Origin: Conexibacter arvalis
GTDB taxonomy: Bacteria; Actinomycetota; Thermoleophilia; Solirubrobacterales; Solirubrobacteraceae
Assembly (NCBI RefSeq): GCF_014199525.1
Contig: NZ_JACHNU010000006.1
Location: forward strand, 1-64,000
DNA length: 64,000 bases
Direction of reading: 5' to 3'
This document shows positions 24,850 through 52,867 of this stretch, one piece after another (the first letter of the stretch is position 1; every line of letters starts with the position of its first letter). The notes under the pieces are model-generated. The model saw only the letters and a program-made list of their open reading frames with translations. It was not told the origin of the DNA and made no database searches. The position numbers and the translations under genes were made by a program.

Positions 24850-25973
24850 GCGGCGGGGGCGGGAGCGGCGGCGGCGCGCGCGAGAGCGGCCGCGCGGGCG
24901 AGAGCGGCCGCGCGGGCGAGAGCGGCCGCGCGGGCGAGAGCGGCCGCGCGGGCGAGAGCGGCCGCGCGGGCGAGAGCGGCGGCGCGGGCGAGAGCGGCGG
25001 CGCGGGCCGGAGCGGCGCGCGCGAGAGCGGCCGCGCGGATGTAGTCGGCGGCAGCGGCGGCGCGCTGGAGCTGCGGGGCGCGGGCGACGTGCTGCTCGAC
25101 GAGCCGCTGGCGCTGACCGCGCGGGGCGCCGGGGGCGAGCCGGTGACCTGGCAGGCGCGGCTGCGCGACGACGACGGGCGCGTCTGGCGGGCGACCGCAG
25201 ACCGTCCCGAGGCGCTCGCGACCGCATGGACGCCCGCGAAGGCGACGACCGGCGACGTCGCGGCGCTGCGCTCGCTGCGCCCGGTCGCGCTGGAGCTGCG
25301 TGCCGAGACCGTCGACGGCCGCGCCGCGGCGCGCACGTTCAGACGCCGCCTGCTCGCCGACGGCGTGAGAGTCCGCCGCTGGCGCGACGGCGCGCCCGGC
25401 ACGCTGCTGCTGCCCGTCCGCGAGCGCCCCTGTGCCGCGCTCGTCCTCCCCGCCGCACCGCCGCACGCCGCCCCGGCGCCCTCGCCGCACGGCGCGCCGG
25501 CCGGCGCAGCCGCCACCGCACCGCCGCACACTGCCCCAGCGCCCCAGACGGCCTCGCCGCACGGCGCGCCGGCCGCGCCCCAGACGCCTTCGCCGCACGG
25601 CGCGCCGGCCGCGCCCAAGACGCCTTCGCCGCGCGGCGCGCCGGCCGCGCCCCAGACGGCCTCGCCGCACGGCGCGCCGGCCGCGCCCAAGACGCCTTCG
25701 CCGCACGGCGCGCCGGTCGCGCCGGAGGCGGCGGTGCTGCCGGCGGCAGCGCTGCTCGCGTCGCGCGGCGTGCTCGTCTTCGTCGCCGACGGGCCAGCCG
25801 CGGATGCGCTCGAGCTGCTCGCCGCCGTCCCCGCGGCGAGACGCGCCGAGCGGCCGGCTCACCTGCGGGCCGCCGTCCCGCTGCCGCCGGGCCTCCCGAC
25901 GCGCCTCGGGCCGGCCGACGCCGCCGCCTGGGCCGCCCTCCTCGCCGAGCTGGGCGCCGACGCGCGCAGCTGA
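24846..25973 (+). CDS. Repeat-rich protein with BAAT-N-like domain
   Basis: A 375-aa protein beginning at GTG inside the previous stop codon (GTGA). Residues about 10-65 are ESGRAG-type 6-residue repeats. Residues about 75-190 resemble the N-terminal beta domain of acyl-CoA thioesterase/bile-acid acyltransferases (DEPLALTARGAGGEPVTWQA, GRVWRATADRPEAL). Residues about 230-292 are 12-residue repeats (APQTASPHGAPA). A short tail resembles part of a hydrolase core (AAALLASRGVLVFVAD) but no catalytic Ser-elbow is seen. It is probably not an active thioesterase. Translation is likely coupled to the NYN gene. Confidence 0.6.
   Translation: MSGGGGSGGGARESGRAGESGRAGESGRAGESGRAGESGRAGESGGAGESGGAGRSGARESGRADVVGGSGGALELRGAGDVLLDEPLALTARGAGGEPVTWQARLRDDDGRVWRATADRPEALATAWTPAKATTGDVAALRSLRPVALELRAETVDGRAAARTFRRRLLADGVRVRRWRDGAPGTLLLPVRERPCAALVLPAAPPHAAPAPSPHGAPAGAAATAPPHTAPAPQTASPHGAPAAPQTPSPHGAPAAPKTPSPRGAPAAPQTASPHGAPAAPKTPSPHGAPVAPEAAVLPAAALLASRGVLVFVADGPAADALELLAAVPAARRAERPAHLRAAVPLPPGLPTRLGPADAAAWAALLAELGADARS
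24882..25007 (+). repeat. 18-bp tandem repeat, 7 copies
   Basis: Seven adjacent 18-bp units (five identical, two with one change) code ESGRAG/ESGGAG at the N-terminus of the BAAT-N-like protein; a degenerate copy follows. The unit length keeps frame, so copy number can vary without loss of the gene. Confidence 0.95.
25539..25718 (+). repeat. 36-bp tandem repeat, 5 copies
   Basis: Five 36-bp units at 25539, 25575, 25611, 25647 and 25683 code variants of APQTASPHGAPA. Alternate units share CAG ACG GCC or AAG ACG CCT forms, which points to unequal recombination. Confidence 0.93.
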
Positions 25974-30783: not shown

Positions 30784-30837
30784 GGGGCGGGTCTCCTTCG
30801 GTTGGCGAATGCGCTTGAGTCCGAGCGCAGACAGCAA

Positions 30838-30865
30838 CCTAACACAACTGTTAGGGCAACCTAAC
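30838..30865 (-). promoter_or_regulatory. DtxR/IdeR-like iron box upstream of HtaA-domain gene
   Basis: The 16-bp palindrome GTTAGG-N4-CCTAAC occupies 30850-30865. A third half-site CCTAAC at 30838-30843 pairs with the same GTTAGG. By hand, 13 of 19 positions match the published IdeR/DtxR consensus TTAGGTTAGSCTAACCTAA. The site fits iron repression of a heme-uptake gene, as known for htaA in corynebacteria. Confidence 0.7.
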
Positions 30866-31109
30866 TTAAGCTGTACGCTCGGTAGGCGACGCCGATCGCC
30901 GCTGCGACGCCCGCGTCGACGCCCGATAGAAGCGCACGTCGCCGGCGGTGCGCCGCAGTCGAAGGGCGCACTACAGCATCGTCCCCAAGATCAACAGCGA
31001 CCTGTCGGACACGACCGCCCGCGAATACGGCGTCGTTGGAGATCGCCGACAGCGTCACCAGGGGAGACAGCCCCTCGTGGGCGGCGTGGCGATACACGAC
31101 CCGCGGCAT
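30861..31109 (-). CDS. Hypothetical small ORF, possibly a remnant (82 aa)
   Basis: ATG at 31109 opens 82 codons that I do not recognise (e.g. SAISNDAVFAGGRVRQVAVD, RALLSGVDAGVAAAIGVAYR). It follows the reverse transcriptase gene by 51 nt on the same strand and runs into the iron box. No ribosome site is clear. It may be a gene fragment at the island edge; the rest of 30866-31160 holds no other supported feature. Confidence 0.25.
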   Translation of the reverse strand: MPRVVYRHAAHEGLSPLVTLSAISNDAVFAGGRVRQVAVDLGDDAVVRPSTAAHRRRRALLSGVDAGVAAAIGVAYRAYSLS

Positions 31110-31160
31110 AACACGCTGTTGTCACACGCCAGGCCGCCTCCCATCGGAGGCGACGGCCAC

Positions 31161-32726
31161 CTACAGCTTGCTCCATCTGATCGGCGAGCCGCGCAACAAA
31201 TCGGCGATCTGCTTGAGACCCGGCGAAGCGCCGCCCCATCTGTCGTACGCATTGTCTCGAACCACCCTCGCCTTTTCCTGCAGTGCGACGAAGGCATACA
31301 TCCGCCATCCCGGGTCCGAGGAGCGCAAGAACGCTTCCACAACCGATATGTCGTTGATCGCGCTGTGCTTACCCCAAGCAACAAGCGCCTTCGCACGGAT
31401 GAGTGGGTTCGCATCGTTCAATGCAATGCCCCCAAGCACCGATGCGAGCGTTCTGCCGTCACCGCTCGGCAAAGAAAGAGCCCGGTTGCAGGTCGCAAGC
31501 TTCTCGAAGTCGCGACTGGATCGATCCGCGTGCAGGACCTCAGCGAACACGCTAGTAGCAGCTTCGCGGTTGGTTCTGGCCACCGCCGCGACGTATCGCA
31601 TAGCAGTATCCACTATGTCTGGCACGCGCCGCAGAATGTCCGGGACGAAAACCACCGCCTGTGCGTCCCCAATCGCCTCCAGCTTTCGAAACACAAGGCC
31701 CATGTCTGCGCTGAACGCCGAGGGAAGGTCTTCGGCTTCGAGATCCGACATGAGCCGGTCGAACTCTTCGAGCGTGAGTTCGCGATCAATCTCGTCAGGA
31801 TCAGGAAGGATCTCCTCCTCCTCATAGTCGCCCCACGTAATCGTAACGGTGCCGGCGTCCATTGCCGCTTGCTTCTTCTGCTCAAATCGCTCACGGGCAG
31901 GCTTGAGACGTCTGATCGCGGTCTCGGCACGGAGAATCCGAGTCTTCTCTCCATTCAGAGTCAGAGCCATGCCGTACAGATGCCGCTCAATGTGATCTTG
32001 CACCCGCCGAGCAGCACCAAACGAATCACAGATCGCCCACATATCGTCCATCCAACGAAAGAACGGAACAGACATGGATCCGAGAAGGCGATCGAGCGAG
32101 GCGAGATAGACGTTTCCAAGTGGGGATGACGGTCGAACCCCCTGCGGCAACCCCCGGATCCCCAGGTCCTGCCAACGCCCCAACATCTGCGCCAGATCCC
32201 CGACGACATCCGCGCGATCAGACACCTCCAACAGTTGGCTTTTCAGCGTTCCCGGTCGAATACCCAAAAAGTAGCCGCTAATGTCGGTCTGCAGAACGTA
32301 CGCTTCGCCCGCCCTTTCAATAGCTTCGCTGACTCCAGCCCGGAACTCATCGTTACTTGCGTTACCTGCGAAGGCATCATCGTCGCTCGAAAGTGCTTGA
32401 CGGTAGGCTCCCACGAACTCCCGAGGCGGCAGCGTCGTCTCGATCGCCGGCCCAAGGGCATCTACCAATGCCTGATACACGATCAGGTCCATCGGGTCCA
32501 AGCGAACGAAAGGGCGGAATGTGCCGCTCTTCTTCGAAGCGATCACAACAACGCCAGGTCTGACCTCGATGTGCGTTCGAATAGATGGCCCTGTATCTCC
32601 ATGAAGGCGATCAAGGACCTCGAACGGGAGTCGGTCGGGAATGTCCATCCCCAGTCCTTGCGCCCACGTACGGACGCGGCGCCATGCCAGCGGGATATCC
32701 AGTGTCGAGAACGACCTCAGCTCCAT
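31161..32726 (-). CDS. Reverse transcriptase, Abi/unknown-group type
   Basis: A 521-aa RNA-directed DNA polymerase. Fingers motif KKSGTFRPFVRLDPMDL lies at about residues 65-81, motif A YVLQTDISGYF (catalytic Asp148), motif B GLPQGVRPSSPLGN (192-205), motif C FFRWMDDMWAI (Asp227-228, Trp in place of the usual Tyr/Phe-Ala), and motif D/E LNGEKTRILRA (256-266). An acidic stretch follows, then a helical HEAT-like C-terminus. There is no maturase or endonuclease domain and no retron VTG motif. This layout resembles AbiA/AbiK and other defence-linked RTs (inference). GC by hand is 58% in two sampled 60-bp lines against 78% in one flanking line, indicating transfer. ATG 32726 is preferred to TTG 32753. 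Confidence 0.85.
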   Translation of the reverse strand: MELRSFSTLDIPLAWRRVRTWAQGLGMDIPDRLPFEVLDRLHGDTGPSIRTHIEVRPGVVVIASKKSGTFRPFVRLDPMDLIVYQALVDALGPAIETTLPPREFVGAYRQALSSDDDAFAGNASNDEFRAGVSEAIERAGEAYVLQTDISGYFLGIRPGTLKSQLLEVSDRADVVGDLAQMLGRWQDLGIRGLPQGVRPSSPLGNVYLASLDRLLGSMSVPFFRWMDDMWAICDSFGAARRVQDHIERHLYGMALTLNGEKTRILRAETAIRRLKPARERFEQKKQAAMDAGTVTITWGDYEEEEILPDPDEIDRELTLEEFDRLMSDLEAEDLPSAFSADMGLVFRKLEAIGDAQAVVFVPDILRRVPDIVDTAMRYVAAVARTNREAATSVFAEVLHADRSSRDFEKLATCNRALSLPSGDGRTLASVLGGIALNDANPLIRAKALVAWGKHSAINDISVVEAFLRSSDPGWRMYAFVALQEKARVVRDNAYDRWGGASPGLKQIADLLRGSPIRWSKL

Positions 32727-32728
32727 GC

Positions 32729-32861
32729 GAGAACTATCACACAGAACGACCAACGGGCGATCGCGTCGACTTCAACGCTGCGAATTGATCACTCCACGAA
32801 GCGCTCCCCTGGCACGATTGAACCGAGAGCGAGCGCCGTCGGCTCGTAGCTCATAGTTCTC
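32729..32861 (-). ncRNA. Candidate structured RNA upstream of the reverse transcriptase
   Basis: GAGAACTAT (5' end on the minus strand, 32853-32861) pairs exactly with ATAGTTCTC (32729-32737), which ends 2 nt before the RT ATG codon. The pair would close a 133-nt RNA with an internal CGAGC/GCTCG hairpin. The position and a GAGC directly after the first arm recall retron a1/a2 arms and RT-associated ncRNAs. No gene is otherwise seen in 32727-32893. Confidence 0.4.
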
Positions 32862-32893
32862 AGCCGCTGCAGCGATCCTGCCGCAGCGCGCCC

Positions 32894-52087: not shown

Positions 52088-52867
52088 TCAGCCCCGCGGG
52101 GCGCCCATCTCCTCGGAGACGCGCGCGGCCGTCGCCCGCACGGCGGCGAGCACCGCATCGCGTCGCCCGTCGCCGAGCACGTCGGCGCGGAAGCCGGTGA
52201 CCGACAGGCCGCCGCAGCAGCGGCCGGTCGCGTCGAAGACCGGCGCCGCCATGCAGGCGATCCCCTCGTACTCCTCCTCGTCTTCGACCGCATAGCCGAC
52301 CGCGGCGCTCTCGCGCAGACCGGCGAGCGCCTTCGCCGCCCCGCGGCCGTCGCCGACGAGCGCGCGCTGGCGGTCCTCCGGCAGATGGGCGGCGATCGCC
52401 TTGCCGAGCGCAGTGGCGCCGAACGGGACGGTGCGGCCGACGAAGGTGTGGAACTGGACGAACGACGGGCCCGCCGCCTTCGCGAGGTAGATCACCTGGT
52501 CGCGCTCGAGCACGCCGGCGTGGGCCGGGAGGCCGACCTCCTCGGCGAGCCGCTCGAGGTGCGGCTGGGCGATCTCAGGCAGGCCGAGCCTCGTGATCAG
52601 CCGCGCGCCGAGCCGGTAGATCGCGAGCGTCGGCTGCCAATGGTGGGTGCGCCCGTTGACGCGTTCGACCGCGTAGCCGCGTGCTTCCAGCGTCCGCATG
52701 ATCGCCGAGCAGCTCGCGAGCGGGACGTCGGCGCGGCTGGCGATCTCGGTCAGCGAGAGCGGCCCCTCGGACTCGGTCAGCAGCTCGAGGATCGTCAGCG
52801 TGCGATCGGCCGCCGGCGCCTTCGAGCGCGGCGGGGGCGTGGCAGCGGCGTGTCGGGTGTCGTCCAT
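52088..52867 (-). CDS. IclR-family regulator (second)
   Basis: A 259-aa regulator with an HTH (LTEIASRADVPLASCSAIMR) and an IclR effector domain (PFGATALGKAIAAHLPEDRQ, CMAAPVFDATGRCCGGLSV). Convergent with the first IclR gene and divergent from the U32-like/aldehyde dehydrogenase pair, which it probably controls. Confidence 0.92.
   Translation of the reverse strand: MDDTRHAAATPPPRSKAPAADRTLTILELLTESEGPLSLTEIASRADVPLASCSAIMRTLEARGYAVERVNGRTHHWQPTLAIYRLGARLITRLGLPEIAQPHLERLAEEVGLPAHAGVLERDQVIYLAKAAGPSFVQFHTFVGRTVPFGATALGKAIAAHLPEDRQRALVGDGRGAAKALAGLRESAAVGYAVEDEEEYEGIACMAAPVFDATGRCCGGLSVTGFRADVLGDGRRDAVLAAVRATAARVSEEMGAPRG

What the first reader, a model, noticed from the sequence alone, without database searches (positions are those of the whole stretch)
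31161..32726. Lone reverse transcriptase of defence-like architecture in a low-GC island
Seen: intact RT motifs (TDIS, GLPQG, WMDD, NGEKTR) with a Trp-Met-Asp-Asp catalytic box, no maturase, endonuclease or integrase domain, and a helical HEAT-like C-terminus. Sampled GC is about 58% against about 78% nearby. Known: Abi-type and unknown-group RTs with such C-terminal repeats are antiviral. Inference: this is a transferred, probably single-gene anti-phage system, possibly a new subtype.
Basis: partly seen in the sequence, partly recalled or inferred. Interest (0 to 1): 0.82.

Follow-up and report, generated by a model that had tools for sequence, protein, structure and literature searches.

The report
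Lone, unclassified UG/Abi-type reverse transcriptase
A bacterium with very GC-rich DNA carries a single foreign-looking gene for a reverse transcriptase of the kind bacteria use against viruses; it fits none of the named subgroups well, so it is probably a new branch of a known defence family, with its antiviral role still untested.

Summary
On the minus strand, 31161-32726 (ATG, 521 aa) is an intact reverse transcriptase (RT) with TDIS, GLPQG, WMDD and NGEKTR motifs. Pfam finds only RVT_1. A predicted helical C-terminus resembles HEAT/alphaRep repeats. The gene is about 59% GC in a 74% GC window (GC3 0.66 against 0.93-0.97), single-copy, and absent from six congeners. The low-GC stretch is about 2.1 kb, essentially one gene.

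It belongs to the UG/Abi (defence-associated) RTs. Long matches are to PADLOC RT_UG22 (171 bits), Drt8 (143), UG21 (140) and UG20 (119); the C-terminus alone matches UG22 (43 bits). Assigned members score 252-758 with their own model and about 90-200 with sister models, so this RT lies between the named groups. Trees reject group II RTs (AU p = 0.028) but cannot say which UG group is sister.

Likeliest mechanism: a one-gene abortive-infection polymerase like AbiA, AbiK or DRT4, making untemplated, protein-primed DNA. A linker aromatic shared by neighbouring groups suggests Tyr301 as primer; this is inference. Defence itself is untested. No accessory gene, known ncRNA, mobile element or close relative was found.

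The parts
31161..32726 (-). RT gene, 521 aa from ATG (530 aa if TTG at 32753 is used)
   Evidence: open frame; RVT_1 and UG/Abi models
31902..32567 (-). RT palm/fingers domain, about residues 54-275
   Evidence: PADLOC and Pfam match ranges; model core Z up to 21 to solved RTs
32277..32288 (-). motif TDIS with first catalytic Asp148
   Evidence: invariant Asp in the alignments
32139..32153 (-). motif GLPQG
32043..32054 (-). catalytic box WMDD (Asp227, Asp228)
31938..31955 (-). motif NGEKTR
31737..31859 (-). linker, about residues 290-330, with Trp298 and Tyr301 (31824-31826); candidate priming site (hypothesis)
   Evidence: aromatic in 17 of 17 filled rows of one linker column; low-confidence, probably flexible in the model; AbiA analogy from PMC11077055
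31197..31739 (-). C-terminal helical repeat (HEAT/alphaRep-like) domain, about residues 330-510
   Evidence: UG22 model match to the C-terminal part alone, 43 bits; AF2 helices and alphaRep/HEAT matches, Z up to 12.5
32727..32893 (-). 5' intergenic region; any promoter or ncRNA would lie here, none demonstrated
   Evidence: fold z -2.7 against shuffles; no promoter-like site; no Rfam match
30890..31160 (-). 3' intergenic region up to the HtaA gene's promoter area
   Evidence: fold of 30838-31160 z -2.2; no Rfam match
30792..32862 (.). maximal low-GC segment (60.2% GC)

Best explanation
A horizontally acquired, single-gene defence-associated RT of the UG/Abi family, of the kind with a C-terminal HEAT/alphaRep domain, lying near UG20, UG21, UG22 and DRT8 but inside none of them. 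Most likely it works like AbiA, AbiK or DRT4: the RT palm adds dNTPs without a nucleic-acid template, starting from a hydroxyl of the protein itself (best candidate Tyr301 in the linker between RT and helical domains); the helical domain supports oligomers and holds the growing strand; phage infection lets the DNA or DNA-protein adduct build up and stops or kills the cell. Shown here: intact RT, family membership, helical repeat-like C-terminus, foreign composition, no detected partner. Inferred: untemplated synthesis, the priming residue, oligomers, the phage trigger and abortive infection.
For: UG/Abi profiles match over most of the length, UG22 171 bits, E 1e-50; the C-terminal part alone matches UG22, 6e-12; group II placement rejected; C-terminal model resembles alphaRep/HEAT repeats, the domain that marks Class 1 DRTs, which make untemplated DNA (PMC13174585); DRT4 does so as a single gene (PMC13213688); linker aromatic in 17 of 17 filled rows at the place from which AbiA primes (PMC11077055); no Rfam RNA and no defence neighbour; GC and GC3 foreign; single copy, absent from six congeners.
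Against: No experiment. Tree position within UG is unresolved, so transfer of mechanism from AbiA, AbiK or DRT4 is loose. The linker column was noticed after aligning and not tested statistically; the window RT has Trp in the column itself and Tyr three residues later. Flanking RNA folds slightly better than shuffles, so an ncRNA is not excluded. It is not in a recognisable defence island.
Confidence: 0.5

Rival explanations
1. A UG-type defence RT that copies an adjacent, unrecognised ncRNA (as DRT2, DRT9 and DRT10 do) into a defined or repetitive cDNA.
For: Upstream 167 nt and downstream region fold somewhat better than shuffles, z -2.7 and -2.2; Class 2 systems work this way (PMC13174585).
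Against: Drt2, Drt3a, Drt9 and UG17 models score only 34-45 bits; no Rfam match even at E = 1; the C-terminus is of the alphaRep kind. No relatives exist for a covariation test.
Confidence: 0.2
2. A UG-type RT acting with an unlinked or lost partner, or now serving a non-defence role in this host.
For: No defence genes next door; UG relatives sometimes have partners, for example UG9 RTs beside a DNA polymerase gene.
Against: The frame and catalytic residues are intact in a foreign-looking gene.
Confidence: 0.2
3. A group II intron, DGR or retron RT that has lost its companions.
For: The RT fold is shared, with the best structural Z to a group II RT (21.3); the tree test does not firmly exclude retrons (p = 0.09).
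Against: Group II placement rejected (p = 0.028); group II maturase equivalog 55 bits against a cut-off of 300 and retron St85 27 against 235; no intron or retron RNA family; no convincing variable-repeat pair; C-terminus homologous to UG22.
Confidence: 0.03

Closest known systems
UG22 reverse transcriptases (PADLOC RT_UG22, PDLC03760)
   Same: Best model overall (171 bits over residues 49-497) and the only good match of the C-terminal part alone (43 bits); similar size; linker [E/D]Y followed by acidic residues in L005, L080, L088
   Different: Assigned UG22 members score 252-482 bits; identity to the window RT is 20-27% in the N-terminal part and 12-16% in the C-terminal part; tree support for joining UG22 is 27/7
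UG21, UG20 and DRT8 reverse transcriptases
   Same: RT half scores UG21 133, Drt8 122, UG20 106 bits; same RT plus helical C-terminus plan and linker aromatic
   Different: Members score 416-581, 744-758 and 479-534 with their own models; C-terminus hardly matches these models
DRT4 (UG15), AbiK and AbiA
   Same: Single protein, RT domain plus helical solenoid; RT core superposes with Z about 15-18; linker Tyr like AbiA
   Different: Distant in sequence (10-15% identity; AbiA model 36 bits); no activity, priming or oligomer data for the window RT
Unassigned RT L051 in a genome of the same family (G014)
   Same: 484-aa RT with RWVDD box; 26% identity over 253 alignment positions, E 4e-12
   Different: LPTG in place of LPQG; no PADLOC family at 1e-30; very long branch, grouping not firm

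Membership tests
UG/Abi (defence-associated) reverse transcriptases | RT domain closer to UG/Abi RTs than to group II, DGR or retron RTs | tested here: met
   Eleven UG models score above the generic RT model; tree places it among UG RTs, group II rejected p = 0.028; retrons p = 0.09 only
UG/Abi (defence-associated) reverse transcriptases | C-terminal helical HEAT-like (alphaRep) domain, the mark of Class 1 | tested here: met
   UG22 C-terminal match 43 bits; AF2 model resembles alphaRep/HEAT, Z up to 12.5 over 114 residues, modest confidence
UG/Abi (defence-associated) reverse transcriptases | Anti-phage activity | not testable with these tools
   needs plaque assays
UG22 | Full-length score in the range of assigned members | tested here: not met
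   171 bits against 252-482 for six members; sister-model scores run about 90-200
UG22 | Falls in the UG22 clade | tested here: inconclusive
   AU p = 0.21 on the RT domain; joined with support 27/7 on full length
UG20, UG21, DRT8 | Full-length score in the range of assigned members | tested here: not met
   119, 140 and 143 bits against 744-758, 416-581 and 479-534
Named antiviral equivalogs Drt2, Drt3a, Drt4, Drt5 (NCBIfam) | Score above curated cut-off | tested here: not met
   27-52 bits against cut-offs of 200-550
Group II intron RT | Maturase domain, intron RNA, group II clade | tested here: not met
   RVT_1 only; no intron RNA; clade rejected
Diversity-generating retroelement | Template/variable repeat pair near the RT | tested here: not met
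   Only GC-rich pairs of 40-48 nt at 69-75% identity and a 36-nt tandem array within 25.5-38.5 kb, none in the RT gene
Retron | Retron RT model score and msr-msd RNA | tested here: not met
   St85 model 27 bits against 235; no Rfam match; tree test alone p = 0.09
AbiK/AbiA/DRT4-like untemplated polymerase | Protein-primed or template-free DNA synthesis and oligomers | not testable with these tools
   linker Tyr301 is only a candidate

The most novel reading that the evidence does not exclude
The protein founds a separate UG group of one-gene defence RTs, and UG20-22, DRT8 and this lineage share a priming aromatic in the RT-to-alphaRep linker, making linker-primed DNA synthesis (as in AbiA) the common mode of this whole, mechanistically unexplored branch.
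Probability: 0.2. Interest if true: 0.65.

Novelty: new member of a known kind. Interest (0 to 1): 0.42.

Why it matters
The UG20-23/DRT8 branch of defence RTs has no worked-out mechanism that I could find: a 2026 overview lists DRT8 as 'dedicated mechanism not yet established' (PMC13213688), and the held library has no paper on UG22. A compact, one-gene member with a clear candidate priming residue is a simple test case. It also suggests that the named groups do not cover the RT diversity of GC-rich actinobacterial-type genomes.

Tried and rejected
Close relatives: scans of viral contigs gave one distant RT and one Drt8 only; the single genome-contig scan gave four distant loci; alignments A1 and A5 were too diverse to scan. 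These scans use a few short peptide patterns, so failure does not prove absence. Plasmids and phages by tblastn: best 31% over half the protein, a UG21. Exact empty site: not obtained; the right flank from 32893 is syntenic in congener G003 but is followed there by a gene that lies at 52098-52833 in this window, and the left block lies elsewhere. Group II, retron and DGR readings rejected (see rivals). Promoter scan found nothing. AF2 of the whole protein is weak (mean pLDDT 59.6, seven rows), so only its RT core was interpreted. A fingers-loop priming Tyr as in AbiK (Tyr44, PMC9508834) was considered and dropped: there is no Tyr before residue 84. The original UG/Abi classification paper (10.1093/nar/gkac467) and the DRT4 paper (PMC12783706) are not held, so class assignments of UG20-22 could not be checked there.

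Full report
What is there. The minus strand of 31161-32726 encodes a 521-aa protein (530 aa if the TTG at 32753 is used) without internal stops. It carries TDISGYF, RGLPQGVRPSS, FFRWMDDMW and LNGEKTRI. Pfam finds RVT_1 above its cut-off and nothing else of note. The gene has about 59% GC and GC3 0.663, while seven neighbours have GC3 0.93-0.97 and the window averages 74.3%. The maximal low-GC segment is 30792-32862, so the 'island' is one gene and its flanks. The copy is unique in its genome and absent from six genomes of the genus; three of 60 relatives have only distant UG21 or UG22 RTs. The same search over 399 genomes of the class gave one other genome, with a UG21.

Surroundings. To the left is a 1117-aa HtaA-domain protein (haem uptake, from family knowledge), then a conserved gene that looks ParB-like by eye but has no Pfam match; to the right is an operon with amidohydrolase and enolase-superfamily genes. 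None of the six nearest proteins matches a defence model. No tRNA or long repeat borders the gene. Compared with congeners, the right flank is conserved from 32893 and the left from about 27400 downwards, but these blocks are not neighbours in G003: the RT lies at a synteny break. Transfer is thus inferred from composition and distribution, not from a mapped element.

What family. PADLOC profiles of UG/Abi RTs match over most of the length: UG22 171 bits, Drt8 143, UG21 140, UG20 119, UG23 112. To judge these scores I collected other RTs and scanned them. Assigned members score 252-482 (UG22), 416-581 (UG21), 744-758 (UG20) and 479-534 (Drt8) with their own model, and about 90-200 with sister-group models. 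The window RT has only scores of the second kind. Split in two, its RT half prefers UG21 (133) and Drt8 (122) over UG22 (115), but its C-terminal part matches UG22 (43 bits, 6e-12) and little else. NCBIfam's named antiviral equivalogs are far from their cut-offs.

Trees. On 226 RT-domain columns of 42 proteins, the protein falls among the UG RTs, away from group II, CRISPR-associated and retron RTs. Holding it with the group II set is rejected (p = 0.028); with retrons it is not firmly rejected (p = 0.09). Sister relations to UG20, UG21, UG22, UG9 or Drt8 are all allowed (p 0.19-0.27). A full-length tree puts it beside UG22 with negligible support (27/7). So the family is clear and the position within it is not. 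It is a long branch, which limits any tree.

Structure. AlphaFold2 with seven rows gives a usable RT core (pLDDT about 72-88 over residues 131-270) that superposes on solved RTs with Z up to 21. The C-terminal part modelled alone is a stack of 12 helices, best defined over about residues 410-499 of the protein. Its nearest solved folds are artificial alphaRep, HEAT and armadillo repeats, Z up to 12.5 over 114 residues.

A lead on mechanism. In the full-length alignment one column in the linker between RT and helical domains is filled in 17 of 23 rows, and all 17 are aromatic: 14 Tyr and 3 Trp, often as PY or EY. The rows include UG20, UG21, UG22, Drt8 and one Drt4. The window RT reads TWGDYEEEE there, with Trp298 in the column and Tyr301 three residues later. 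AbiA primes DNA synthesis from tyrosines in just this linker (PMC11077055), whereas AbiK primes from Tyr44 in the fingers (PMC9508834), a region with no Tyr here. Class 1 DRTs with an alphaRep domain make untemplated DNA (PMC13174585), and DRT4 does so as a single gene (PMC13213688). From this I infer an AbiA/DRT4-like, protein-primed, template-free polymerase that acts through abortive infection. None of those steps has been shown for this protein. The linker column was noticed after the alignment was made and was not tested statistically; a linker aromatic can also be structural.

Alternatives. An ncRNA template cannot be excluded: the 167 nt upstream and the stretch downstream fold somewhat better than shuffles (z -2.7 and -2.2), in a genome where GC-rich stems are common, and no relatives are at hand for a covariation test. 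No Rfam family matches even at E = 1. A partner elsewhere, loss of function or a non-defence role is also possible.

Verdict. I file it as a new member of the UG/Abi defence RTs that no named group claims.

Noticed in passing
window 30846-30870: Palindrome TTAGGGCAACCTAA just upstream of the HtaA-domain gene (minus strand) resembles a DtxR/IdeR iron box (from memory), fitting iron-regulated haem uptake; the terminator scan flagged it as a stem.
   Followed up: no
L051:1183-2637:+ (genome G014, same family): A 484-aa RT with RWVDD box and LPTG, no PADLOC family at 1e-30, 26% identical to the window RT (E 4e-12): another unassigned RT.
   Followed up: partly
L068, L070, L071, L072 (genomes of family f19): A cluster of RT-like ORFs with RGLP[IV]GPEPS and RWVDD, Drt8 model about 100-113 bits, forming one starred clade near the window RT; not assigned to a group.
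   Followed up: partly
L089 3956-7398 (viral contig IMGVR_UViG_3300050166_000169): A Drt8-like RT on a viral contig with an AbiEii-family gene just upstream and an overlapping downstream ORF without a Pfam match that by eye has a PD-(D/E)XK-like stretch.
   Followed up: partly
L082 and L084 (Paraburkholderia and Falsirhodobacter plasmids): UG9-type RT genes overlap a downstream gene annotated DNA polymerase in both plasmids, a conserved pair.
   Followed up: no
window 25503-25766: 36-nt tandem repeat, about six units, GC-rich, near the conserved ParB-like gene.
   Followed up: no
window 32893 and 52098-52833: In congener G003 the IclR-like gene corresponding to window 52098-52833 lies directly beside the amidohydrolase that borders the RT here: a rearrangement at the RT's right edge.
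   Followed up: partly
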